Source of the DNA: Chryseobacterium gleum
Lineage (GTDB): Bacteria; Bacteroidota; Bacteroidia; Flavobacteriales_D; Crocinitomicaceae
Direction of reading: 5' to 3'
Assembly (NCBI GenBank): GCA_945897755.1
Contig: CAMDGH010000019.1
Span: forward strand, 1-37,360
Length of the DNA: 37,360 nt
Positions 263 to 36,278 of the stretch are shown piece by piece (within the stretch, counting starts at the first letter, position 1; each line of letters begins with the position of its first letter). The notes under the pieces are model-generated. The model was not told the DNA's origin. It searched no databases and was given only the letters and a program-made list of their open reading frames with translations. The position numbers and the translations under genes were made by a program.

Positions 263-340
263 GATAGATTTAAATCATTAATGATAACTAAACGATCTCT
301 CAATTACCTACATTTGTTAAAAAAAAAAATGTATCTAAAA

Positions 341-1834
341 ATGAGAAACTTATTATTTTTTTGGATTTTTATACTTGCACAAGTAGGTCTTTATGCACAA
401 ACTCAAGGAATCGCCTATACCGCTGTTGGCAAGGGTGTTGCTACTACTTTTTTGACAGATTACCAATGTTTAGGGATTAATACATCCGCGTTGGGTTGGG
501 GTTCAGGTTATGAAAAAAAAAGAGTAACAATGGGGTCTAGCGAATTTGCTTTTGGTATGTATTCAGATGTATTAACGAGTAAAAAACTAAAGAATTTCTC
601 AAATGCTATTTGGTCTTCTCTAAAAGGGGATACTGCAACAGCATTTGATTGGAATAAACAACGCTCAGCAGTTGCTGATTACGCAACATCAGGAGTGTCT
701 TTATTTGCAGATTATAATTGGGGCGGCATTTCATATCAAGGAAAATTATTGGGTGGTATAGCGTTTAATGTCCACGAAAACTATCAGTTTTATTCTAAGT
801 TAAATCAAAAAACAACAGATATTATAATCAATGGAAAGTTAGCTTCTTTGTTTGATTCGCTTACGATTAACATGAATGGTGTTGATGTAAAAGTTGCTAA
901 TACAGGAAGTTTATCCACAGATTCAATGAAAGCAGTTGTTTCAGGATCAATGTCTGTCCCTTTAAATTTAAGTACTTTACTAAATGGCACTTCGATTAAG
1001 ATGATCTGGAATCGATCTTACAACTTAGGGTATGGTCGCAGAGTATTTGCTATAGATGATGTTATTGAATTGTATGCTGGTATTGGTGGGCGTTTGATAA
1101 AGTCAATGGCAATGTTTGAGCTGGATGCTTCACCAACCGGCTTATCCATGTTTTCTTCTTTATCATCTATTTTTAAAATTGATTATCCAAGTGTTTTAAA
1201 TAATGGTCTTAATTTAAAAGACTACTCTGGGGGTATTCCTCCTGCTGTTGGAAGTGGCTACGGCTTAGATTTTTCTGTAAGTGCTTTTTTACTAGGTAAA
1301 TTCCGAGTGGCTATGGCGGTTAATAATTTAGGTTCTGTGACATATGACCGGAATGTTTATGGTGTTAAAGACACGCTAGTTAGTGCGATCAAAATTGATG
1401 GTATAAATGATTTAAATTTAACCAGGTCGATTAATCAATTATTAAATAATGGAGGTTTATTGACTTTAAAAGGAACTGAAAAACACACATTGGTAAATGC
1501 GTCTTCTTTTAGATTGGGAGGCAGTTTTCATTACAAACAACAATTAGGGATTGGGTTCGATTTAGTCGCTCCATTCAATAGTGATAATCCTGGGAACATT
1601 AAAAACGCCGTCATTTCAGTTGGTGGAGACATTCGGATTCTAAAATGTGTTCAATTAAGTGCTGGATTTTACGGTGGAGGTATTTACCGTTCTAATTTTC
1701 CAATGGGAATAAATTTTATTTTAAAAGATGGAAGTTATGAATTTGGAGTTTCTTCAAGGGATATTCTCACTTTTTTCAAAACAGATACACATAGTCTTTC
1801 CTTTGCATTTGGCTTCGCACGATTCCGTTTTTAG
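341..1834 (+). CDS. Secreted/outer-membrane conserved protein, DUF5723-like
   Basis: Signal peptide MRNLLFFWIFILAQVGLYAQ starting at ATG 341 (ORF track start 281 lies upstream of a poly-A tract); beta-rich Bacteroidota OM protein character. Confidence 0.7.
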   Translation: MRNLLFFWIFILAQVGLYAQTQGIAYTAVGKGVATTFLTDYQCLGINTSALGWGSGYEKKRVTMGSSEFAFGMYSDVLTSKKLKNFSNAIWSSLKGDTATAFDWNKQRSAVADYATSGVSLFADYNWGGISYQGKLLGGIAFNVHENYQFYSKLNQKTTDIIINGKLASLFDSLTINMNGVDVKVANTGSLSTDSMKAVVSGSMSVPLNLSTLLNGTSIKMIWNRSYNLGYGRRVFAIDDVIELYAGIGGRLIKSMAMFELDASPTGLSMFSSLSSIFKIDYPSVLNNGLNLKDYSGGIPPAVGSGYGLDFSVSAFLLGKFRVAMAVNNLGSVTYDRNVYGVKDTLVSAIKIDGINDLNLTRSINQLLNNGGLLTLKGTEKHTLVNASSFRLGGSFHYKQQLGIGFDLVAPFNSDNPGNIKNAVISVGGDIRILKCVQLSAGFYGGGIYRSNFPMGINFILKDGSYEFGVSSRDILTFFKTDTHSLSFAFGFARFRF

Positions 1835-9571: not shown

Positions 9572-11014
9572 ATGATTCGAGGGCTTTCTGCTATAGTGAT
9601 TACCTTTGGCTTTGTTTTAACCCTAAAAGCCCAAGACTTAGTTCATGATACTGCTTTTTCAAGGCCTGATTTTGCTAAAGTAGGCGGCTTGGTGTCCTAT
9701 TTTTTTTGGGAGGAGGATTCATCCCATATGATTAAGCGTAAGGGAATCGCAAAACCTTTTCTTCAAAATTACAACATTCAATTTAACGACACAAATCAAC
9801 TTACAGGTTCGCTATCTTTGACAAACTTAAAAAAATCAATCGCATCTGTAGCTCACGAACTACCTATCTCTAAGCATACGTTTTCTTTATCAATTCATGA
9901 TTCTTCATCATCTAAGCATATTAAATTTCGCTTAAAACGAACCTTAGCTGATGTTGTTTCCGTAATTTGTTATCGAAAGTATGCTGGTGTTTGGAGATCT
10001 GAATCACTTAAAAAGGTTCTTTATTTTAATATATATAAAAATGGGAGTTCAGTTTTTTCACACTCATCTGATTCGGTCTATTTAAATATACATGATAAAG
10101 GTTTTTCGGTGAGAAATGTGCATCACGTTTTTTCATATTTAAACGACACCAATAATGTAATTGATCAGCGTGTTTTTTCTTATACTGGAGAAGACGTTAC
10201 AATGCAATTTGGCAGCCATCTTAAACCTTCTCCAAAGCGCATCATGTTATTCGTTAATGGATATAGGGGGATTAAAGCTGAACGAGACGAAACAGATCAC
10301 CTCATCACTTTAAAAGACCGATATCATTATTGGTATAAAATTGACAATCGGTTTATAACTATTTTAAAACCAAATAGTTATTTTTACATTGATGCGAGCA
10401 TGAGCTTAAATACTACAACGCATCGATCATCATTTAATATAGCGATAAGCTTTCTCCGGTCTCGATTTATTTTAAACAAAAAAAAAGCGCATGATCGTTT
10501 CACATCATTAAACACAGAATCTAATGCTTCTGGTTTTGCTTATCGAAAAAAACAAGGCGCGATTGGCGCTCAAGTATTATTGGCGACCTTATGCAATATG
10601 GCTTTATGTGAAGGGGTAATGGATACGATTGATTTCGCAAGCCATAGTATGGGATATGCATACTCGCTTGGGATGATCGAAGCATTGAAAGGGAAAGTCG
10701 TTTTTGGAAAGATGTATATACTAGCTCCTGAGAATGCTTGTTCTGATGGATTTGACTGGTCGTTATTTGAAGAGGTGTGGCAATATGGTAGTAATTTAGA
10801 CCAAGCTAAACCAGATGCATTGTGGGAGCAAGACGGAATAGCTCCTCAATGTCAGGTTAAAGGATTAGAGAATGATCTTTTAAAGCATCGGGGCAGGGCT
10901 TTTATACCTGCTGATTGGAAAAAAAAGAATTTTATTGATAGTCACATGTTGGATAATTTTGATTGGATTTTTCAATGTATCAAGAAAGGGGAACCAGGAT
11001 ATATTGGCAGGTAA
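9572..11014 (+). CDS. Secreted putative alpha/beta-hydrolase (lipase-like)
   Basis: Signal peptide MIRGLSAIVITFGFVLTLKAQ; LFVNGYRG strand; nucleophile-elbow-like SHSMGYAYSLG; downstream Asp/Glu and His candidates (ILAPENA, DSHMLDNF). Confidence 0.5.
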   Translation: MIRGLSAIVITFGFVLTLKAQDLVHDTAFSRPDFAKVGGLVSYFFWEEDSSHMIKRKGIAKPFLQNYNIQFNDTNQLTGSLSLTNLKKSIASVAHELPISKHTFSLSIHDSSSSKHIKFRLKRTLADVVSVICYRKYAGVWRSESLKKVLYFNIYKNGSSVFSHSSDSVYLNIHDKGFSVRNVHHVFSYLNDTNNVIDQRVFSYTGEDVTMQFGSHLKPSPKRIMLFVNGYRGIKAERDETDHLITLKDRYHYWYKIDNRFITILKPNSYFYIDASMSLNTTTHRSSFNIAISFLRSRFILNKKKAHDRFTSLNTESNASGFAYRKKQGAIGAQVLLATLCNMALCEGVMDTIDFASHSMGYAYSLGMIEALKGKVVFGKMYILAPENACSDGFDWSLFEEVWQYGSNLDQAKPDALWEQDGIAPQCQVKGLENDLLKHRGRAFIPADWKKKNFIDSHMLDNFDWIFQCIKKGEPGYIGR

Positions 11015-17317: not shown

Positions 17318-20300
17318 TTAATCTAATAAGGAAAGTAAATCTTCTTGTTTTAATGATTTTAAAATAGAAGTATCTGTTTGAATGAGATCATCAGCTAAAG
17401 TTCGTTTCGATTGCTGTAAATCCATGATTTTCTCTTCAATAGTACCCGGACAGATTAATCTTACCGCAACAACATGTTTTTCTTGACCAATACGATAACA
17501 ACGGTCTATCGCTTGATTTTCGACTGCAGGATTCCACCAAGGATCTATGATGTACACGTAGTCTGCTTGAGTTAAATTAAGCCCTGTACCTCCTGCTTTT
17601 AAACTGATTAGAAAAACTCTGATTTTATCGTCTTCTTGAAACTCTTCTACGATTGTTTTTCTTTTTGTGGACTTCCCTGTCAAATATGCGTAACCAATTT
17701 CATGTTTATCTAATTGAGATTTAACAAGGTCTAGCATTCCAACAAACTGACTAAAAACTAAAATTTTGTGATCATCTTTCTTTTCAAGTATTTCTGCAAG
17801 TAAAACATCAATCTTTGCTGATTCATCACCATAAAACTCCTCTTCTTTGAGTAAAGCAGGTGAGTCACATATTTGCCTTAATTTTGTAAGCGCAGCTAAA
17901 ACAAACATACTATCTGTGTTTTTCTTTTCTGACTTAGAAGCATTTAAATAATCACGCATTTCTTTTTTATATGCTTCGTAAACCTTTTTTTGTGAATCAC
18001 CCATTTCACAATAAAGGATCATTTCTGTTTTGTCAGGTAATTCTTTCGCAACTTGAGCTTTAGTTCTTCTCAATATAAAAGGATTAACCTTACGCTGAAG
18101 TTCCTTCGCTCTTACAGCATCTTTAAATTTATCAATTGGAGTCGAATACTCATCTTTAAAGTGTTGCTTAGATCCTAATAAACCAGGACAAGCAAAAGAG
18201 AGTTGAGCAAACAAATCAAATGTATTGTTTTCAATTGGTGTACCTGTCATCACGATTCTATTTCGCGCTTTTAGTAAGCGAACAGCTTTGTAGCGTTGTG
18301 AATCTGGGTTTTTTATCGCTTGAGATTCATCCAATACAATATAATTGAATTTAAATTCCTTGATGTGCTGAATATCAGACATCAAGGTGCCATACGATGT
18401 TAGTACGACCTCAAAATCATCTAGTTTTTCTGTTGTTCGTTCTCTACCAGAACCATAAATAGTGGTTACTTTCAATGATGGAGCAAACTTTTCAAGTTCA
18501 TGTTGCCAATTAAAAATTAAAGAAGTCGGCAACACAACTAAGTTTGTTTGATTTTTATGCTTTTTGCGTTGAATTAGAAAAAAAGCAATCATTTGAATGG
18601 TTTTTCCTAAGCCCATATCATCAGCCAGACATCCCCCAAAATTGTAATCATCCAAGAAATTTAACCAATTTAATCCTTCTTTTTGATAATCACGTAAGTT
18701 TGCGTTTAGTTCTTTTGGAATAGTAATTTTTTCAATTTCTTTAAATGAGGTTAAGCGATTTTTTAATAACGTTAATTCATCCGAAATCTCCTTATTAAGG
18801 AATGCTCCATCAAACGCCTCCTCAATAAACGAAAAATTCACTTTTGAAGTACGAATGGTTTCTTTATTTAAATCACCCGTACGAAAGTATTTTTCAAAGC
18901 GTTCTATCCATTCGTTCGGAAGCAATCCATTTGATCCATCAGCCAATGTTACATATCGCAACTTATTTTTTACTGCTTTTTGTAATTGTTTTAATGAAAC
19001 ATGTTGTCCGCCATACTCTAACTGGACAGAAGTTTCAAACCAATCAATTCCGCTACTTACTTTTACAGCTACTTTCGCTTTATTAGGATTTAAATTATTG
19101 TTCTTAATCGAATTAAATCCAAGAATTGTATACCCCAATGATTTCCATGTTTCATAGGCATCTAGAAACCAACCTTCGTCTAAAAAAGCTCGTTTTGGCA
19201 GATAATAAAAGGATTGTCCATATTGCTCTTCAAAATGAGGGTGCTGTCTTAATAGTACGCTGATAAAGTGATCTTCTAATTTTAAATCACGATCTTGAAT
19301 AAATACTTCGCCTTGATCATCAATGCATTCTATTTGTTTGTGAGTTAAAATTGGGATTTCAATTTCATTGTATTTCAAAACAGGTGTAAGTAAAATGAAA
19401 TCGTCCGACTCTGATATATAGATTATGTGCTCCTTTTTATTACTTAATAGCGCGGTTTTTTTTTGTACTATACTTGCTTTCTTAATAAAAGAATATTCAA
19501 TTTTAATCGTTTTTTCTAATGTATCAATTACTTCATTTTTAAATGTTTCAAATCCAGATTCGTGAACAATTATTTTTCCTCCTTGAGTATTAAAGAAGTT
19601 GAATAATTTAATAATTTGAGGAGATTTGATGAGATAATACACTTCATTTTCTGCAATAAAAAACTTTAATTTTAACTTATACTGGCTTACCGGAATGTAT
19701 TTCCCTTCAATTCTAAGTTGTGGCTTAATTTCATAAAACTCCTCCTCTTTACTTACTTTTAAAAAGAACTCAATTTCGGAATTCTTTAACTGAATCTGTT
19801 TAATCGATTTTACATTTATATTATCTGAAATTCGCTTGTCGTGCATATAAAAAACCCAATTCATCGGATTTTCCACCAGCAACTGAAGCGCATTTAAATC
19901 TTCTTCAATTGTCGTGGATCGATAGGACTCTTCCAATCGATTTGCAGCTACTAAAAAACGAACTTCTGATAAATCGGTTGTTTGCATCAATAAATCTTGC
20001 ACACTGCAATTATTAATAGGGTTTTTAATGCCTCCACCTATTTTAGTTGCTGCTTCTGAAACGGATAATTCTAATTCTGAATTGTAATTATCAATACCCA
20101 AAACAATAAAACGAGTATTGTGGATTAAAAGTTCTTTTTTCTTAAATGAATCAAATGAAGGGGGAATAAGTACGTTTTTTATTATATTATTTGTGGAATT
20201 CGCATTAAGTTTAATTAGTCCTTTTACTTTTGGTTTAACTTCTATGTTTCCGTATTTTTCTTTTACTATTTCAAAATAACGATCTAGGTCAACCACATTT

Positions 20301-21040
20301 TCCATTCCATATAATTGAGCTTCTTTTTGTATGCTTTTCTTATAAAAAGTTTGGTCAAAAAAAATACGTAAGTGATCCGTATTGATAATATGATAAAGTA
20401 CTCTAACCTGATGATCACACATCTTTTTCTTTGGTTTGTTGCACTTACAAAACAAACTCAATTCCTTATTAAGATGATTGAAACTGACGCATACTGGACT
20501 TCTTGATTCCGATGGATAATAAGAGATTTCAGCATAATTTGACCGAACAGACTCTTCTTCAAAATAATAATTTCGAGAATTTATAATTGGATTTGTTGCA
20601 TGTTGCTGAATCCATCTATAATCTATTTTTTCGAAATCAACCCCTGAAACAGTATATTCAAATAAGTCAAAGACGGGTTGTGCAGCGATATCGGAACTTA
20701 TGATTCCCCCTGTATGTTCATCAATCGTCTCAAATAACGATAACTGATTATCGTTATTCTGAATTCTAAGGAGTTCATCTGCCTGTATTAAAACCAATAC
20801 AATGTGTTTACAGATTCCAGAAAATGAATATGGACAAGTACAAACGGCAGTCTCAACTTTAACTGGATTGTATAAAATATCAACCTTGTATACGGAAGTG
20901 CCTTTCACTTCTGCTTTTATGTGAGATTCTTTAACATTCAAGGATATTACTTCAGAATCAAGAGACCTTTCCCTTATAATACTAGTACTATTTAGTGCAA
21001 CAAATGTTTTAAATGCTTTGAATTGTAAATCTAAACTCAT
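17318..21040 (-). CDS. SNF2-family DEAD/DEAH helicase with SWIM zinc-finger N-terminus
   Basis: Walker [12 protein letters not shown], Walker B [10 protein letters not shown], motif V/[42 protein letters not shown]; SWIM-like [13 protein letters not shown]. Confidence 0.93.
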   Translation of the reverse strand: [1240 protein letters not shown]

Positions 21041-28491: not shown

Positions 28492-29301
28492 ATGAAATCA
28501 ACCATTGAAAATGCCTGGGAAGACCGATCTCTTCTTAAAGAAAAAAAAACAATTGAAGCAATCGAACACGTAATTGATGAACTTGACAAAGGCGTAATTA
28601 GAGTAGCTGAAATGAACGATTCAGGAATATGGATAATCAATGACTGGGTAAAAAAAGCCGTTATCTTATATTTTCCAATCCGAAAAATGGAAACAATACA
28701 ACTTGGACCATTTGAATTCCATGATAAAATGAAATTAAAAAAAGGATATGAAAATCTTGGTGTAAGGGTAGTTCCTCATGCAATTGCTCGTTACGGATCT
28801 TATTTAGCATCAAATGTGATATTAATGCCTTCATACGTAAACATTGGCGCCTACATCGATGAAGGGACGATGGTTGATACTTGGGCAACCGTTGGGTCTT
28901 GTGCTCAAATTGGGAAAAACGTTCACTTAAGCGGTGGTGTAGGAATTGGAGGTGTATTAGAGCCGGTTCAAGCATCCCCTGTAATTATTGAAGACAATGC
29001 ATTCATTGGATCTAGATGCATCATTGTTGAAGGTGTTCGAGTTGGAAAAGAAGCTGTGCTTGGAGCAAATGTAGTACTTACAAAAACAACTAAAATAATT
29101 GATGTTTCAAATGCACAACCGATTGAATCTTGCGGATACATTCCTGAAAGAAGCGTCGTTATACCTGGGACTTACACGAAAAAATTTAACGCAGGTGAAT
29201 TTCAAGTACCTTGTGCACTAATTATTGGCAAAAGAAAAGAAAGTACTGATTTAAAAACTTCTTTAAATGAAGCATTAAGAGATCATAATGTTGCTGTTTG
29301 A
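28492..29301 (+). CDS. dapD: 2,3,4,5-tetrahydropyridine-2,6-dicarboxylate N-succinyltransferase
   Basis: Left-handed beta-helix hexapeptide repeats; VNIGAYIDEGTMVDTWATVGSCAQIGKNVHLSGGVGIGGVLEP. Confidence 0.95.
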   Translation: MKSTIENAWEDRSLLKEKKTIEAIEHVIDELDKGVIRVAEMNDSGIWIINDWVKKAVILYFPIRKMETIQLGPFEFHDKMKLKKGYENLGVRVVPHAIARYGSYLASNVILMPSYVNIGAYIDEGTMVDTWATVGSCAQIGKNVHLSGGVGIGGVLEPVQASPVIIEDNAFIGSRCIIVEGVRVGKEAVLGANVVLTKTTKIIDVSNAQPIESCGYIPERSVVIPGTYTKKFNAGEFQVPCALIIGKRKESTDLKTSLNEALRDHNVAV

Positions 29302-29412: not shown

Positions 29413-32400
29413 ATGAAATTAAAATTTACATTTTCAATAATTATTTTTTTGTTTAGTTTTAGTACCATTTCATTTGCACAAAAAGAATCTTTTAAGTGTG
29501 GGCATCCTGAAATGCAACAAAAACTTTGGGGCTTACATCCTGAAATGAAGCTGGAATACGAAAAAATATTTCTAGAATCAAAATCGAATTACACCTACTC
29601 TAAAAAGAGAAATAAATTTATTATTCCTATTGTTTTCCACATAATTCATCAAAATGGTGATGAAAATATTTCTGATCAACAAATTAAAGACCAAGTTAGA
29701 ATCCTAAATTTAGACTTTTTAAAGCTTAATCCAGATACTGCAAATATCGATCCGGCTTATAACGATATAATTGCAAATTGTAATTTTGAATTCAGATTAG
29801 CTACAATTGATAACCTAGGAAAAAAAACTAATGGAATAGATCGAATTTACTCTCATTTAACAAATAATGGAAGTGATGCTTCAAAATTAAATCAATGGGA
29901 TCGTTCTAAATATTTAAATGTTTGGGTGGTAAAAACAATTGGTAAAGAAGGCGTTGCCGGTTATGCTTATTTTCCAGCTGGTGTAAATGGATATAATTAT
30001 GCATTTGACGGAATTATTATAAAACACGAATACATTGGAAGCATTGGAACCTCCTCTCCTTATTCCTCTCGAGCACTGACTCATGAAATAGGGCATTACC
30101 TCGGATTACACCATACCTGGGGAGATGGTAATAACCCTGGGGTTGCGTGTGGAGATGATTTTGTAGATGATACTCCAACTACAAAAGGATATACGGTTTC
30201 TGGAACTCCATTTACTGCAAAAGTAAACAATCCTCAAACTTGTTCAAGAGATACTATTACTTACACCATGTTACTAGATAGTGTAAAATTAAATTCAGGA
30301 AATACCGACAAAACACCTATTTCAACAACCAGTGTAAATTTCAAATTAAATTCACTCAAAGCAGAAAATCTGACTCCCAATTCATTGATGTCAAAAATAT
30401 TTGCATTTGGAAATTGGCCAATTGGAGGAATAAATGGTGATACAACATCTCAAAACAACAATGGGGTAATTGACACAACTAAATACTATGAAATAGGATT
30501 TTCTCCTAAACAAATGAATATGCTTAACCTAGAAAGCATGTCTTTTTTATTAAGTAGAAATAATTCAGGGATTAAAAATATTTCAATCAGAAATAACAAA
30601 GACAAGTATTCATCGAGTATCCCATTTACGTTTACTTCTGTTCCAACTGCAATTATAAACACTGGTTTCTCATATGACACCGTAAAATGTATAAATTCAT
30701 CAAATCCTAAACCAATTAAAGCTACTGAATTTACAAATGGTGGCTACTTCAAGTCCTCAACAGTTAAATTCATTGACACTCTTTCTGGTGAAGTAGATAT
30801 TACTAAAATCAGTAATGGAACTTATAGTATTTCCTATATTATACCTGCAACAAGTTTGAGTGCCAAAACTACAAAAACAGTAAAACTAATAGTTGACTTC
30901 CAAGCATCAGCTTCATTAACTTATGCTAAAAGCATTGCTTGTAACTCAGGTTACAATCATCCAACGGTTAACATTCAAGGAGGAAGCTTTTTTGGTTCAA
31001 GTGATCTATCATTGGATGTAAATTCAGGTACAATAAATTTAAACAACTCTAAACCTGGCACTTACAATATCACTTACACTGCTAAAGGCGGAAATTGCGA
31101 TAATACATCTTCGGTATTTGAATTGAGAATAACGGAAAAGAATAATTCAAACATTGCCCACAAAGACGATACAATTTGTAAGGGAAATAGTACATATATC
31201 CCTAAACCTAAAAACACTGAAAATTTTGCAAAAGGAGGTAAATATATCGCCGCAAAAACAGGTGTCATCATAAATAGTGCTACAGGAGAAATTAATTTAA
31301 CTGCATCCAGTGTTGGAAAACACGATATTTATTACACAATTGACGCTACAGATTGCAGCACCAAGAAAATAGATACATTTTCCATTCTAATTAAAGCCGC
31401 AATAGCTAGAACATTTTCATATCCTAAAACTATCAATTGTATTCAAACTGGACCAAACGCAAATTTAAATGACACATTGAAGCCAATTACCTCATTTAAA
31501 TTAAAAGATAGCTACACATTTTCTGCTCCATCAGGTTTAGTTTTTACTGATATTACTAAAGGATACATCGATTTAAAAAACAGCATAGATAGTGTTTACA
31601 CACTAACTTTAATTGTTAAGGATTCAAACAGATGTGAAGTAAATCTGAAAACAGATGTGCAAATCATTTCTGAATCACAAAAGCCAATCACAAAATTCTC
31701 ATATGCAGCTGACTTATGCGGAAATAAAACAGGTGTTCTTCCAGTTCTTGAGTCTAAATTTGTAAAATCAGGTACTTTTTCAGCATCTAACAAGATGATT
31801 ATTAATCAAATTACGGGGGAGCTCGACTTAAAAAAATATAATTTTGACACTGTGTATGGAGAGAAAAAATTTGCTGTATACTACACAGTTAATACAGAAT
31901 GTAATACAATTAAAACATCGAAAGATACTGCCTACCTTACCATTACTTCTCCAACATCAATATCATTATCGAATTCTATATTCGCTAATAAAGACTCAAT
32001 ATCATTAAAAGTAATTGGCTATGGCACCTCAAAAAACCTACTGTTTGGAACATTTACATCAAATCCTTCACTGACAATTGATAACAAGGGAAACATTAAG
32101 CTTTATAAAGCTAATCCTGGAACATACACCGTAAATTACATATTGCCCGAAGCTAAAAAATGTACAAATACGAACATACCTATTACATTGACCGTAATTC
32201 AACCAAGTGTAATAAATTTAAAAAACGATATTCGTTTTGTTTCTGACGAAGCAAATACGATCAACGTAAATCTTACTTTAGATTCAAAAAAATATTCAGA
32301 CCTTAGAAAAAATGATTCACTTATCTTTAGAATATATGGTTGGAACTCCGAAGATTTCAATGGATTTCTTGGATTAGACTCATTGAAAATAAAAATAAAA

Positions 32401-33795
32401 AGTTCTTCAATCGACAACATTGAGAATTACATGGAATACGCATATCAATCTAAAATGTTTACAAAGGGACAGCAAAACAGAATGACAAACAGTCTCCTAA
32501 GTAGCATAAGTAATAGAAACAATCTATGGAAAGATGAGAATCTGATTGAAACTGGAACAAAAGATGAAGACACATCTACGAAAGCTCCTAAAGTTGCTTT
32601 TACTAGCGTAATTAATAAAGGTGATTTTTCAAATATGTCTAAAATGATTTGTATTGGTCAATCAATCAAATTTATTGATCAATCATGGGAGCCAACAAAT
32701 TCATCAGTTGAAAGAACATGGATATTTGAAGATGGAGTTCCTTCTTCATCAAATGAGAATAATCCTATTGTAACATATTCGACCGCTGGTAAGAAAAAAG
32801 CTACACTTATTATAAAAAACAGTAAGGGTACTGATTCATTAACAATAAACGACGTAGTCACTGTGTATGATAATTCGGGTTCAACTGTCGGACCAATTGA
32901 ATTTGATTTCGAAGGTGCGACTCCTGAAAATTGGGTTATTCAAAATGAATTGTCTAATTACGCGAAATTTTCAATTGTAAATAATACAAGTTATAACAAG
33001 GGGTCAAATTGCTATAAATTGAACAATTACAAAAGTTTAATCGATGTAAAACCATACGAGGAAGACTACTTCTATTATGAAAGATTAAACGGAGCAAAAG
33101 ATGCTTTAACTACAAATCAGATGGATTTATCTACATCATCAAATGTTACATTAAGTTTTGACTATTCTTTTGCTTCAGACGCATTTGATGAATTACGAAT
33201 GACTGATAAATTAAATGTTTACTCTTCCAAAAATTGCGGTGAAGATTGGACATTATTAAAAACAATCGGAAGTTCTAAAAACATTTCTGCAGAAAAGTAT
33301 GCCCCTGTTAAAGGCACTGACTATACGCTTATAACAGCAGGAAATTTTAATGGTATAGACTTTAAACCTTCTGTTTTAAATCAATGGAAAAGTATCTCTA
33401 TCCCATTAACTATCGGTAAAACAGATACTAAAACGAGATTTAAATTAGAGTTTACTGCATCATCAACTTCAAATAACTTATACATTGATAATTTAAATAT
33501 CAATGGTGTTCTTGGAATTAATGAAAGTCCATTGACAGCAATGGATATATCGATTTACCCTAACCCAAGTAATGGAAATCAAAAAATAACAGTTAGCTAC
33601 ACCGCAAACAATGAGCCTGTGACTATATCTCTTCTCGACTTAGATGGGAAATTAATTTCGAGCAACACAAATAGTACAACAAATGGAATAGTTCAGCATT
33701 CAATTGATTTGAATCAATCGTTAACAAATGGATGTTATTTCGTGACGATATCGCAAGGTAAGTTCTCAACGACAAGAAAATTAATTATACTATAA
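29413..33795 (+). CDS. Secreted M43 (pappalysin-like) zinc metalloprotease with inserted domains, PKD-like domain and T9SS type A sorting signal
   Basis: Signal peptide; HEIGHYLGLHHTWGDG (residues 224-); late Met-turn-like IENYMEYAYQSKMFTKGQQNRM; PKD-like IKFIDQSWEPTNSSVERTWIFEDG; C-terminal ISIYPNPSNG...CYFVTISQGKFSTTRKLIIL. Confidence 0.9.
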   Translation: MKLKFTFSIIIFLFSFSTISFAQKESFKCGHPEMQQKLWGLHPEMKLEYEKIFLESKSNYTYSKKRNKFIIPIVFHIIHQNGDENISDQQIKDQVRILNLDFLKLNPDTANIDPAYNDIIANCNFEFRLATIDNLGKKTNGIDRIYSHLTNNGSDASKLNQWDRSKYLNVWVVKTIGKEGVAGYAYFPAGVNGYNYAFDGIIIKHEYIGSIGTSSPYSSRALTHEIGHYLGLHHTWGDGNNPGVACGDDFVDDTPTTKGYTVSGTPFTAKVNNPQTCSRDTITYTMLLDSVKLNSGNTDKTPISTTSVNFKLNSLKAENLTPNSLMSKIFAFGNWPIGGINGDTTSQNNNGVIDTTKYYEIGFSPKQMNMLNLESMSFLLSRNNSGIKNISIRNNKDKYSSSIPFTFTSVPTAIINTGFSYDTVKCINSSNPKPIKATEFTNGGYFKSSTVKFIDTLSGEVDITKISNGTYSISYIIPATSLSAKTTKTVKLIVDFQASASLTYAKSIACNSGYNHPTVNIQGGSFFGSSDLSLDVNSGTINLNNSKPGTYNITYTAKGGNCDNTSSVFELRITEKNNSNIAHKDDTICKGNSTYIPKPKNTENFAKGGKYIAAKTGVIINSATGEINLTASSVGKHDIYYTIDATDCSTKKIDTFSILIKAAIARTFSYPKTINCIQTGPNANLNDTLKPITSFKLKDSYTFSAPSGLVFTDITKGYIDLKNSIDSVYTLTLIVKDSNRCEVNLKTDVQIISESQKPITKFSYAADLCGNKTGVLPVLESKFVKSGTFSASNKMIINQITGELDLKKYNFDTVYGEKKFAVYYTVNTECNTIKTSKDTAYLTITSPTSISLSNSIFANKDSISLKVIGYGTSKNLLFGTFTSNPSLTIDNKGNIKLYKANPGTYTVNYILPEAKKCTNTNIPITLTVIQPSVINLKNDIRFVSDEANTINVNLTLDSKKYSDLRKNDSLIFRIYGWNSEDFNGFLGLDSLKIKIKSSSIDNIENYMEYAYQSKMFTKGQQNRMTNSLLSSISNRNNLWKDENLIETGTKDEDTSTKAPKVAFTSVINKGDFSNMSKMICIGQSIKFIDQSWEPTNSSVERTWIFEDGVPSSSNENNPIVTYSTAGKKKATLIIKNSKGTDSLTINDVVTVYDNSGSTVGPIEFDFEGATPENWVIQNELSNYAKFSIVNNTSYNKGSNCYKLNNYKSLIDVKPYEEDYFYYERLNGAKDALTTNQMDLSTSSNVTLSFDYSFASDAFDELRMTDKLNVYSSKNCGEDWTLLKTIGSSKNISAEKYAPVKGTDYTLITAGNFNGIDFKPSVLNQWKSISIPLTIGKTDTKTRFKLEFTASSTSNNLYIDNLNINGVLGINESPLTAMDISIYPNPSNGNQKITVSYTANNEPVTISLLDLDGKLISSNTNSTTNGIVQHSIDLNQSLTNGCYFVTISQGKFSTTRKLIIL
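30667..32206 (+). repeat. Six tandem degenerate Ig-like modules inside the M43 ORF (protein-level repeats, ~85 aa)
   Basis: Recurring core G-x-[IV]-[DNK]-[IL]-x(3-6)-[GS]-x-Y-x-[IVL]-x-Y: GEVDITKISNGTYSISYI, GTINLNNSKPGTYNITYT, GEINLTASSVGKHDIYYT, GYIDLKNSIDSVYTLTLI, GELDLKKYNFDTVYGEKKFAVYYT, GNIKLYKANPGTYTVNYI. Confidence 0.75.
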
Positions 33796-34441: not shown

Positions 34442-35206
34442 TCAATTGATTTTTCTTATAAAAAATGATGAGAATCTTTTCCAAACCCCTATTTTCTTTT
34501 TCTTGTAATTTTGAGGTCTTTCAGGAGGATCGATGATGCTAATTATTCCATCCATACCGTTGCGACCACTTTCAAATTCTTTTTCTTCAGTTTTTAAAAT
34601 GATGCCTTTATCAATCGTAATAATAATGTCTTTTTTCAATTTACGATTCGCATCATATAATGCCCTTTTAGACCCGTCCTTGCGATCAAGAATATCTACA
34701 TAACTATATCCCCATGGATAATATATACTAGGAATGGCAGGAATAAAAATCTCACCCGTAAACCAATCTGCAAAAACCTTTGATTCTTGATAATAATACC
34801 TCATCCAATTATTGTCAGTTAGTTTTCTACCTAAATTACAAGGATCTGACCAATTAAATTCAAATAAATAACTTACCGCTTTGGATTGACTATTTCGTAT
34901 AAACTCATCTTCCAAATTAGGTAACTCAAAATTTAAATCGGTTAAAAATAATTTACCATCTATAATGTCCCATTCACTGCTGTGTGGTTTATTTAATTTC
35001 TGATAAGGCGATTGTTTTCCTATATAAATCTTATCCAGATTGTATGATATGAAATTAATCAGTGACCTAAGATTATCTGTTCTTAGTATTGTTTTAGACT
35101 TTTTTGGACTAAGATTTATGGGGTCGGAGGATACTAAATAACGTAATCCGTTGAGGTGAATAAAATCCTCATTATCTATTTTTAACCATATGATTTGTCT
35201 TGACAT
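34442..35206 (-). CDS. Orphan hypothetical protein (no signal peptide seen)
   Basis: Intact 254-aa ORF with non-repetitive, protein-like composition; no family recognised. Confidence 0.6.
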   Translation of the reverse strand: MSRQIIWLKIDNEDFIHLNGLRYLVSSDPINLSPKKSKTILRTDNLRSLINFISYNLDKIYIGKQSPYQKLNKPHSSEWDIIDGKLFLTDLNFELPNLEDEFIRNSQSKAVSYLFEFNWSDPCNLGRKLTDNNWMRYYYQESKVFADWFTGEIFIPAIPSIYYPWGYSYVDILDRKDGSKRALYDANRKLKKDIIITIDKGIILKTEEKEFESGRNGMDGIISIIDPPERPQNYKKKKIGVWKRFSSFFIRKIN

Positions 35207-35274: not shown

Positions 35275-35775
35275 CTAGTTCCGCGGATATAAATAAACTT
35301 TTCCGTGTACAGTGATATGTGAAATATTTTTATTTTTATTGTATATTACTTCTTTAAATTCCCCATTTTTTAAGTTAACTGAGATAAGTACTTTTTCTTT
35401 ATTGGAATTGATTTTAATACGTACCTCATCCCTTTTTCTTCGGATTCGTTTTATATCGTAAAAGTGTTTATCTCCATAATCATTGTAAACTGAAACTGTC
35501 TTCTCCTCAAAGTTGAAGAAGTAGTATAGTTTTTCATCATTATTACCATTATCCTCACGCCAAACAACTCTCATCTTTTTAAAATCTACTTTATAGGGAC
35601 ATGAAAAGGTATCAGAATTTCGGAAAGATATTGCAAACCCCTCTTTTTTGGCTTCAGATATATTAATTTTTTTATCCTTTAATTGCCAATCCATTTTACG
35701 ATAGTTGTTTTGAGTTTGCGAAAATCCTAAAAAAGAAGTGATTAAGATTACAAATAATAATTTGATTGATTTCAT
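35275..35775 (-). CDS. Small secreted hypothetical protein
   Basis: ATG at 35775 gives signal peptide MKSIKLLFVILITSFLGFSQ; ORF-track start at 35823 is upstream. Confidence 0.6.
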   Translation of the reverse strand: MKSIKLLFVILITSFLGFSQTQNNYRKMDWQLKDKKINISEAKKEGFAISFRNSDTFSCPYKVDFKKMRVVWREDNGNNDEKLYYFFNFEEKTVSVYNDYGDKHFYDIKRIRRKRDEVRIKINSNKEKVLISVNLKNGEFKEVIYNKNKNISHITVHGKVYLYPRN

Positions 35776-35779
35776 AGTT

Positions 35780-36278
35780 TTAAAATTTACTAGTCTCATA
35801 TACATCTCCACAAACACTAACATCTGACATATTTATTGCTTCAAAATACTCCGTATATTTAAAAATATGATTATTCAAATCAACAAATATACTAACGGAC
35901 TTATCATATTCTTTAATTTTAAAAACTAATACATTATTTTTAATACTTACCTTTGAGAAATTGTATGTATATACCATATTCCAGTTTTGTACTAAGGTGA
36001 TTTTTTTATTTTCAATGTCAAAAAAGTAAAAAAACTGATAGTTAGTCGTACCTGAATTCATATACATATGCAAACCACACAGAGATTTTTTGATATTAAC
36101 TTTTTCCTTATATACATAAAATAACTTGGTTGACTAAATGACATTTCGAAACCTTCTTTTTTTGCTTCATTAATATCAATTATTTCATCTGCAATCGGCT
36201 ATTCAAAAAGAGACTTTTTTGCGAATAACTTGCTTGTGCTAAACTCAACGAATAAAATAAAATTAGTGCGTATTTCAT
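35780..36278 (-). pseudogene. Frameshifted tandem paralog of 35275..35775
   Basis: ATG at 36278 gives MKYALILFYSLSLAQASYSQKS; then in another frame DEIIDINEAKKEGFEMSF (vs DKKINISEAKKEGFAISF); then in a third frame KVNIKK...NYQFFYFFDIENKKITLV (vs KVDFKK...EKLYYFFNFEEKTVSV). Confidence 0.7.

What the first reader, a model, noticed from the sequence alone, without database searches (positions are those of the whole stretch)
30082..32484. M43 metalloprotease catalytic domain apparently split by a ~720-residue insertion between zinc motif and Met-turn
The zinc motif HEIGHYLGLHH is at residues 224-234. The only convincing Met-turn plus following helix, IENYMEYAYQSKMFTKGQQNRM...NRNNLW, is at residues ~1003-1040. 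In characterised M43 enzymes such as ulilysin the two are separated by about 60 residues. Here the distance is ~780, in one uninterrupted ORF. If the domain folds from its two halves, the intervening segment is extruded as an accessory lobe next to the active-site cleft, which could gate substrates or act as a built-in inhibitor or adhesin. This architecture is unusual and may be undescribed.
Basis: partly seen in the sequence, partly recalled or inferred. Interest (0 to 1): 0.72.

Follow-up and report, generated by a model that had tools for sequence, protein, structure and literature searches.

The report
Protease active-site domain split by nested inserts
A secreted bacterial zinc protease has its catalytic domain interrupted by a binding-type domain that is itself interrupted by six immunoglobulin-like repeats, and relatives carry different inserts at the same place, which suggests an exchangeable substrate-docking module beside the active site.

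Summary
ORF 29413-33795 (1460 aa) has one zinc motif (224-234) and one Met-turn (1003-1009), 781 residues apart. A profile of insert-free M43s from the same genome matches in two complementary pieces, 71-275 and 997-1049.

The insert has two levels. An about 200-aa jelly-roll-like 'middle domain' (282-412 plus about 933-1000) sits in the zinc-to-Met-turn loop; six Ig-like repeats (418-932) sit inside it.

Many Bacteroidota M43s (about 910-960 aa) carry the middle domain alone in the same loop. Some carry two copies; one distant lineage has other repeats in another loop of it. Same-locus orthologues carry 1 middle domain, 2 middle domains, or 1 plus 6-8 Ig repeats.

Protease core and insert have conflicting phylogenies, so the insert seems to have been exchanged in place as a cassette. 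The cysteine pair bridging the split is lost jointly, never singly.

Best reading: a T9SS-exported M43 peptidase with a discontinuous catalytic domain and a docking (exosite) module on the cleft rim. Architecture well supported by sequence; packing and function inferred. No published description found.

The parts
29413..33795 (+). whole ORF: T9SS-exported M43 peptidase, 1460 aa
29413..29478 (+). signal peptide (residues 1-22, approximate)
   Evidence: read from sequence: hydrophobic N-terminus ending FAQ; not run through a predictor
29479..29610 (+). prosegment with Cys29-Gly30 (window 29497-29502), the cysteine-switch motif
   Evidence: sequence; cysteine-glycine switch described for mirolysin in PMC6949598
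29611..30255 (+). M43 catalytic domain, N-terminal part (residues 67-281)
   Evidence: AF2 plus Foldseek to mirolysin and ulilysin
30082..30114 (+). zinc-binding motif HEIGHYLGLHH (224-234)
30148..30150 (+). Cys246, equivalent of mirolysin Cys243 (partner Cys277 at 30241-30243); both kept in all proteins compared
30199..30201 (+). Ser263, where relatives have Cys (mirolysin Cys262); lost together with its partner at residue 1012
30256..30648 (+). middle domain, first part (residues 282-412)
30664..32208 (+). six Ig-like repeats inside the middle domain (418-498, 501-579, 580-663, 667-757, 760-849, 848-932)
   Evidence: repeat profile (built in part from these repeats), every unit E about 1e-20 or better
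32209..32412 (+). middle domain, second part (residues about 933-1000)
32413..32559 (+). M43 catalytic domain, C-terminal part with Met-turn (Met1007) and C-terminal helix (residues 1001-1049)
   Evidence: helices in AF2 models
32446..32448 (+). Gln1012, where relatives have Cys (mirolysin Cys291)
32641..32865 (+). PKD domain (1077-1151)
   Evidence: Pfam PF18911 E 2.6e-8
33103..33501 (+). Reelin-subrepeat-like beta domain (1231-1363), weak, below cut-off
   Evidence: E 5.4e-5
33553..33789 (+). T9SS C-terminal sorting domain (1381-1459)
28492..29301 (+). dapD (tetrahydrodipicolinate N-succinyltransferase), syntenic neighbour that marks the orthologous locus

Best explanation
This is a pappalysin-family (M43) zinc endopeptidase exported by the type IX system. 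Its catalytic domain is discontinuous: residues about 67-281 and 1001-1049 fold together as one metzincin domain. The loop between the third zinc ligand and the Met-turn, which in PAPP-A extends the lower lip of the active-site cleft, holds an extra jelly-roll-like binding domain. A loop of that domain in turn holds a rod of six Ig-like repeats. The likely mechanism is an exosite: the jelly roll sits beside the cleft and binds a macromolecular substrate or surface, and the Ig rod extends or re-orients that contact. The insert has been exchanged between species as a cassette while the protease around it was kept, so the same protease is re-targeted. Shown: the two-part M43 match, the nested boundaries, the size series, the synteny, and the conflict between core and insert trees. 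Inferred: that the two halves pack together, the place of the insert on the cleft rim, binding, and re-targeting.
For: Two complementary M43 matches. Insert-free paralogue and single-insert orthologues that match in adjoining pieces. Middle-domain profile matches the window in two pieces around the repeats. The middle domain is an autonomous module elsewhere, at the N- or C-terminus of other secreted proteins. Its predicted fold (pLDDT about 80-94 over most of the domain) resembles gingipain K1/K3 adhesin domains and CBMs. The Cys pair that is disulfide-bonded in mirolysin (Cys262-Cys291, PMC6949598) spans the insert and is present in 36 distinct proteins, lost in both positions in 2, never in one. 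Zinc ligands, catalytic Glu, Met-turn and Tyr are conserved in all aligned relatives. Cassette exchange: the core rejects a clade of Ig-carrying proteins (p_AU 1.6e-49) while the middle domain unites them (91/90) and rejects the core's grouping (p 0.0077); G011 is mostly 60-96% identical to an insert-poor orthologue over the core but mostly 24-44% across the middle domain. Precedent for an inserted domain as exosite: fibronectin-like domain of MMP-2/-9 (PMC7771667).
Against: AF2 gave low confidence for the Met-turn (<50) and did not model the repeats, so packing of the two halves is not shown structurally. CBM- and adhesin-like folds are common beta sandwiches and the Foldseek matches to them are weak (TM to target about 0.4-0.5). 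The conserved S1' aspartate of pappalysins (mirolysin Asp289, PMC6949598) lies in a two-residue gap here, so substrate preference cannot be carried over from known members. No binding or activity data exist.
Confidence: 0.6

Rival explanations
1. The insert is a spacer or surface tether: Ig-like repeats hold the protease away from the cell or give bulk, with no role in substrate choice.
For: The same type of repeat is common in surface proteins of the order (177 of 399 genomes), and one array-wide match lies in a non-protease surface protein.
Against: A tether would be expected between catalytic domain and C-terminal anchor, not inside the catalytic domain. The middle domain is kept at exactly this loop across many Bacteroidota, with or without repeats.
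Confidence: 0.2
2. The insert gates or inhibits the active site and is removed or moved to activate the enzyme.
For: Its entry point is on the cleft's lower side by homology to PAPP-A's ZnM loop (PMC9579167).
Against: The normal Cys-Gly prosegment switch is kept, so a second latency device is not needed. The Cys pair bridging the insert is kept in most relatives, so excision would leave chains joined by disulfide only. No conserved cysteine or histidine that could block the zinc is among the invariant columns of the middle domain.
Confidence: 0.1
3. The segment after residue 1001 is not part of the catalytic domain; the enzyme is a pseudo-protease or uses another Met-turn.
For: AF2 did not place the Met-turn confidently.
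Against: No other Met-turn motif lies between 235 and 1000. The second HMM match has i-E 1.9e-11. Zinc ligands, Glu, Met-turn and C-terminal helix are conserved across the subfamily. Cysteines on the two sides are lost jointly.
Confidence: 0.03
4. No cassette exchange: the insert's conflicting tree reflects convergent change of the middle domain after independent insertions of repeats, or one old insertion with losses.
For: The middle-domain tree rests on 149 columns and its Ig clade has support 91/90, not starred; the window protein is a long branch.
Against: Same insertion point and a homologous first repeat (Y-D-T-[IV]-K-C) in all Ig types (sequences). In G011 identity drops and recovers near the domain borders.
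Confidence: 0.25

Closest known systems
Mirolysin and ulilysin (unicellular pappalysins, M43)
   Same: Prosegment with Cys-Gly switch (shown for mirolysin), HExxHxxGxxH-type motif, Met-turn with Tyr two residues on, first of two disulfides, about 33-36% identity over the N-half
   Different: Short zinc-to-Met-turn loop (mirolysin His234 to Met284, 50 residues) and no inserted domain; the S1' aspartate (Asp289) is absent from the window protein and its close relatives by alignment
PAPP-A / PAPP-A2
   Same: Same family; PAPP-A has domains inserted in the catalytic domain (LNR1-2, above the cleft) and a named ZnM loop at the site used here (PMC9579167)
   Different: LNRs lie on the other side of the cleft; the ZnM loop is 63 residues without a domain; no nesting
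Cytophagalysin (CPL1)
   Same: Bacterial pappalysin of Bacteroidota with many Ig-like domains (PMC11674741)
   Different: All eight Ig-like domains follow the catalytic domain in line; the catalytic domain itself (67-329) is uninterrupted
MMP-2/MMP-9 with fibronectin-like domain in the catalytic domain
   Same: Metzincin with inserted substrate-binding domain acting as exosite (PMC7771667)
   Different: Other family, other insertion site (before the zinc helix; own knowledge), other module, no second level
Gingipain K1/K3 cleaved-adhesin domains and CBM jelly rolls
   Same: Predicted fold of the middle domain
   Different: No sequence match in Pfam, NCBIfam or PDB; placed inside a catalytic domain rather than after it

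Membership tests
Peptidase family M43 (pappalysin) | Pfam Peptidase_M43 above cut-off | tested here: met
   67.4 bits against cut-off 23, two stretches
Peptidase family M43 (pappalysin) | HExxHxxGxxH zinc motif plus Met-turn and following Tyr | tested here: met
   224-234 and NYMEY 1005-1009
Peptidase family M43 (pappalysin) | two catalytic-domain disulfides (mirolysin C243-C271, C262-C291); typical of the solved members, not an exclusive criterion | tested here: inconclusive
   first pair present (Cys246, Cys277), second pair replaced by Ser263/Gln1012; most relatives with the same architecture keep both
Peptidase family M43 (pappalysin) | conserved S1' aspartate (mirolysin Asp289) | tested here: inconclusive
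   falls in a two-residue alignment gap in this protein and most relatives; paper calls it strongly conserved
Peptidase family M43 (pappalysin) | cysteine-switch Cys-Gly in a short prosegment | tested here: met
   Cys29-Gly30; switch function not tested
Peptidase family M43 (pappalysin) | proteolytic activity | not testable with these tools
   no assay
T9SS cargo (type A) | Por_Secre_tail C-terminal domain and T9SS in the genome | tested here: met
   TIGR04183 47.4 bits against 23; SprA 2375 bits
Nested domain insertion A1-B1-C-B2-A2 | inserted domain B is itself interrupted by C, with A and B contiguous in relatives | tested here: met
   A contiguous in the 717-aa paralogue, B contiguous in 933-939-aa orthologues
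Jelly-roll / CBM-like or cleaved-adhesin domain (middle domain) | fold similarity | tested here: inconclusive
   Foldseek E 1.7e-4 to 4itc and about 1e-3 to several CBMs, TM to target 0.4-0.5
Jelly-roll / CBM-like or cleaved-adhesin domain (middle domain) | ligand binding | not testable with these tools
   no assay

The most novel reading that the evidence does not exclude
A natural cassette system inside a protease active-site domain: in one lineage of Bacteroidota, a binding module next to the M43 cleft is exchanged between species by recombination at the conserved dapD-linked locus (one jelly roll, two jelly rolls, or a jelly roll carrying 6-8 Ig repeats), re-targeting an otherwise constant protease.
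Probability: 0.35. Interest if true: 0.78.

Novelty: new variant of a known kind. Interest (0 to 1): 0.6.

Why it matters
The zinc-to-Met-turn segment of metzincins is usually a short structural loop. This subfamily shows that it can host inserts of up to about 870 residues while the catalytic motif set is kept, and that the hosted domain can host again. Annotation that looks for one contiguous M43 match misses the second half. The graded natural series (0, 1, 2 middle domains; 1 plus 6 or 8 Ig repeats) is a ready test of how inserted exosites set protease specificity, and the core-versus-insert conflict makes swapping of such modules testable.

Tried and rejected
Pfam, NCBIfam and PDB sequence searches for the middle domain: nothing above cut-off. 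AF2 of the window protein (residues 24-1064, 26 sequences): pLDDT 51, repeats unmodelled because the Ig-carrying orthologues were not among the loci allowed for folding; it does not decide packing. Foldseek alignments to mirolysin and ulilysin cover about 184-253 columns, so they do not test the split either. Idea that the repeats are special to this enzyme: rejected, they are common in the order; the best match outside the genus, G110, is a surface protein, not an M43. Idea that base composition marks the insert as recent foreign DNA: not seen, GC 0.32 for the array against 0.31 for the gene and 0.33 for the window. Idea that relatives without a HExGHxx[GN]xxH hit were dead enzymes: rejected, those inspected have Asp or Ser in place of the motif glycine, as mirolysin has Asp (PMC6949598). 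L141 looked like a single-cysteine exception but is not of this architecture (zinc-to-Met-turn distance 114, middle-domain match far downstream). Literature searches for inserts in the M43 zinc-to-Met-turn segment found none.
Full report
WHAT WAS CHECKED. The ORF at 29413-33795 (+) is a single open frame of 1460 aa. Pfam gives Peptidase_M43 (67.4 bits, cut-off 23, two stretches, the better at 158-290), a PKD domain (1077-1151), a weak Reelin-like beta domain and a T9SS sorting tail (1381-1459) (NCBIfam). The zinc motif is at 224-234, the only Met-turn at 1003-1009, 781 residues on.

IS IT ONE CATALYTIC DOMAIN IN TWO PIECES? Yes at the sequence level. A profile from four M43 paralogues of the same genome whose zinc motif and Met-turn are 56-74 residues apart matches the window protein twice: 71-275 to profile 4-220 and 997-1049 to profile 223-276. 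The two matches are complementary. In the closest paralogue (717 aa, G000:C2) the sequence runs CGDD..DTP..SC..C-TSGEIENVENYMEYAYC, and the query's residues 9-262 and 997-1455 align to it in adjoining pieces. The insert enters after Cys277, the equivalent of mirolysin Cys271, and leaves just before the Met-turn. In mirolysin the disulfides are C243-C271 and C262-C291 (PMC6949598). The second one joins the two sides of the split. Among 38 distinct relatives of this architecture, 36 keep both cysteines, two (the window protein and L078) lack both, none lacks one (Fisher p 0.0014, not corrected for kinship). This is what is expected if the two segments touch.

WHAT THE INSERT IS. Orthologues of 933-939 aa (G003, G006, G008, G009) match the query at about 1-419 and 945-1460 in adjoining pieces. 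What they carry between the Cys277 equivalent and the Met-turn is a domain of about 200 aa, called here the middle domain. A profile of it (A1) matches the window in two pieces: 283-426 (profile 6-151) and 923-998 (profile 124-200). Between them lie six repeats of about 85 aa, 418-932, each with E about 1e-20 or better to a common repeat profile, built in part from them. So the architecture is A1-B1-C-B2-A2: M43, middle domain, Ig-like array, middle domain, M43. Nested insertion as such is a known pattern, up to six levels in cyanobacterial RNA polymerase (PMC13114784). The passages read there did not mention a protease of this kind.

The middle domain has no Pfam, NCBIfam or PDB sequence match above cut-off. 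It was modelled within the 938-aa orthologue as an all-beta domain, pLDDT about 80-94 over most of it. Foldseek finds mirolysin and ulilysin for the catalytic part, then the gingipain K1 and K3 adhesin domains (E 1.7e-4 and 4.7e-4) and many carbohydrate-binding jelly rolls. It is an autonomous module: it stands at the N-terminus of Pedobacter and other proteins and at the C-terminus of DUF5689 proteins. The Ig-like repeats are ordinary repeats of surface proteins in this order; 177 of 399 genomes match the array.

HOW WIDE IS IT? A scan of 84,980 species genomes found 75 loci with the middle domain. About thirty encode M43 proteins with a single middle domain at the same loop, with zinc-to-Met-turn distances of 254-287 where both motifs are held, in Flavobacteriales and other Bacteroidota. 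Two tandem middle domains occur in three genomes of the window's genus and separately in L095 (distances 428-461); in a tree of copies the genus copies and the L095/L093 copies do not pair up, which fits separate origins, although that tree is poorly resolved. L082 (Flavobacteriales UBA7690, distance 740) has a different repeat array inserted in a different loop of the middle domain, near profile position 190 instead of about 131-135. So the middle domain has been extended at least twice by repeats and probably twice by duplication.

CASSETTE EXCHANGE. Nine of the twelve other genomes of the genus have dapD next to the gene, as in the window; in the other three the contig stretch held did not show it. 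The gene is thus at one orthologous place. On the core (zinc half plus Met-turn to C-terminus, 711 columns) the six Ig-carrying proteins are not one clade, and forcing them together is rejected (p_AU 1.6e-49). On the middle domain (149 columns) they are one clade (91/90), and forcing the core's grouping is rejected (p 0.0077). G011, an eight-repeat protein, is 68-75% identical to the insert-poor orthologues on both sides but 37-46% in the middle domain, where it is as near or nearer to Ig-type proteins; the profile along the gene drops and recovers around the domain borders. The simplest reading is in-place exchange of the insert by recombination. Independent insertion with convergence, or old insertion with losses, is not excluded.

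MECHANISM. Shown by sequence: complete catalytic motif set, cysteine-switch motif, T9SS tail and a T9SS in the genome (SprA). Inferred: the zinc-to-Met-turn segment of PAPP-A extends the lower part of the cleft by about 20 A (PMC9579167), so a domain here should sit beside the cleft. A binding-type domain at that place most likely acts as an exosite, as the fibronectin-like domain inserted in the MMP-2/-9 catalytic domain does (PMC7771667). The Ig array would extend the reach. The pappalysin S1' aspartate (Asp289 of mirolysin) falls in a two-residue gap, so preference for Lys/Arg in P1' should not be assumed.

LIMITS. AF2 was run with 25-26 sequences only; the Met-turn had pLDDT below 50, the repeats were not modelled, and no coordinates or PAE were available, so the packing of the two halves and the place of the insert are not shown in three dimensions. 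No ligand, substrate or activity is known. The library held open-access papers only; absence of a description there is weak evidence.

VERDICT. Real, correctly observed, and richer than reported: a nested insertion in a metzincin catalytic domain, member of an apparently undescribed Bacteroidota M43 subfamily with an expandable insert. New variant of a known kind.

Noticed in passing
L082 (Flavobacteriales UBA7690, 12567 bases held), ORF of 1404 aa: Independent second case: a different Ig-like repeat array inserted in another loop of the middle domain of an M43 (zinc-to-Met-turn distance 740).
   Followed up: partly
L095 and L093 (uncultured Bacteroidetes); L032, L035, L037 (genus of the window): M43 proteins with two middle domains in tandem between zinc motif and Met-turn, apparently duplicated more than once.
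   Followed up: partly
L098, L100, L101, L108 (Pedobacter), residues about 24-215 of 1741-1926 aa; L103, L115 C-terminus of DUF5689-type proteins: The same middle domain, unnamed in Pfam, occurs as a terminal module in other secreted proteins, including a nuclease-like one (L112).
   Followed up: partly
window 30199-30201 and 32446-32448; L078: Paired loss of the disulfide that would bridge the insert, in two separate lineages.
   Followed up: yes
window 32425-32460 against mirolysin Asp289: The S1' aspartate called strongly conserved across pappalysins appears absent in this subfamily, also in the insert-free 717-aa paralogue, so specificity probably differs.
   Followed up: partly
window 17318-21040 (-): 1240-aa SWIM/SNF2 helicase, ordinary.
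   Followed up: no
window 281-1834 (+), 9572-11014 (+), 34442-35206 (-), 35275-35823 (-): Four ORFs of 517, 480, 254 and 182 aa without a Pfam match; the first looks like an outer-membrane beta-barrel protein by eye.
   Followed up: no
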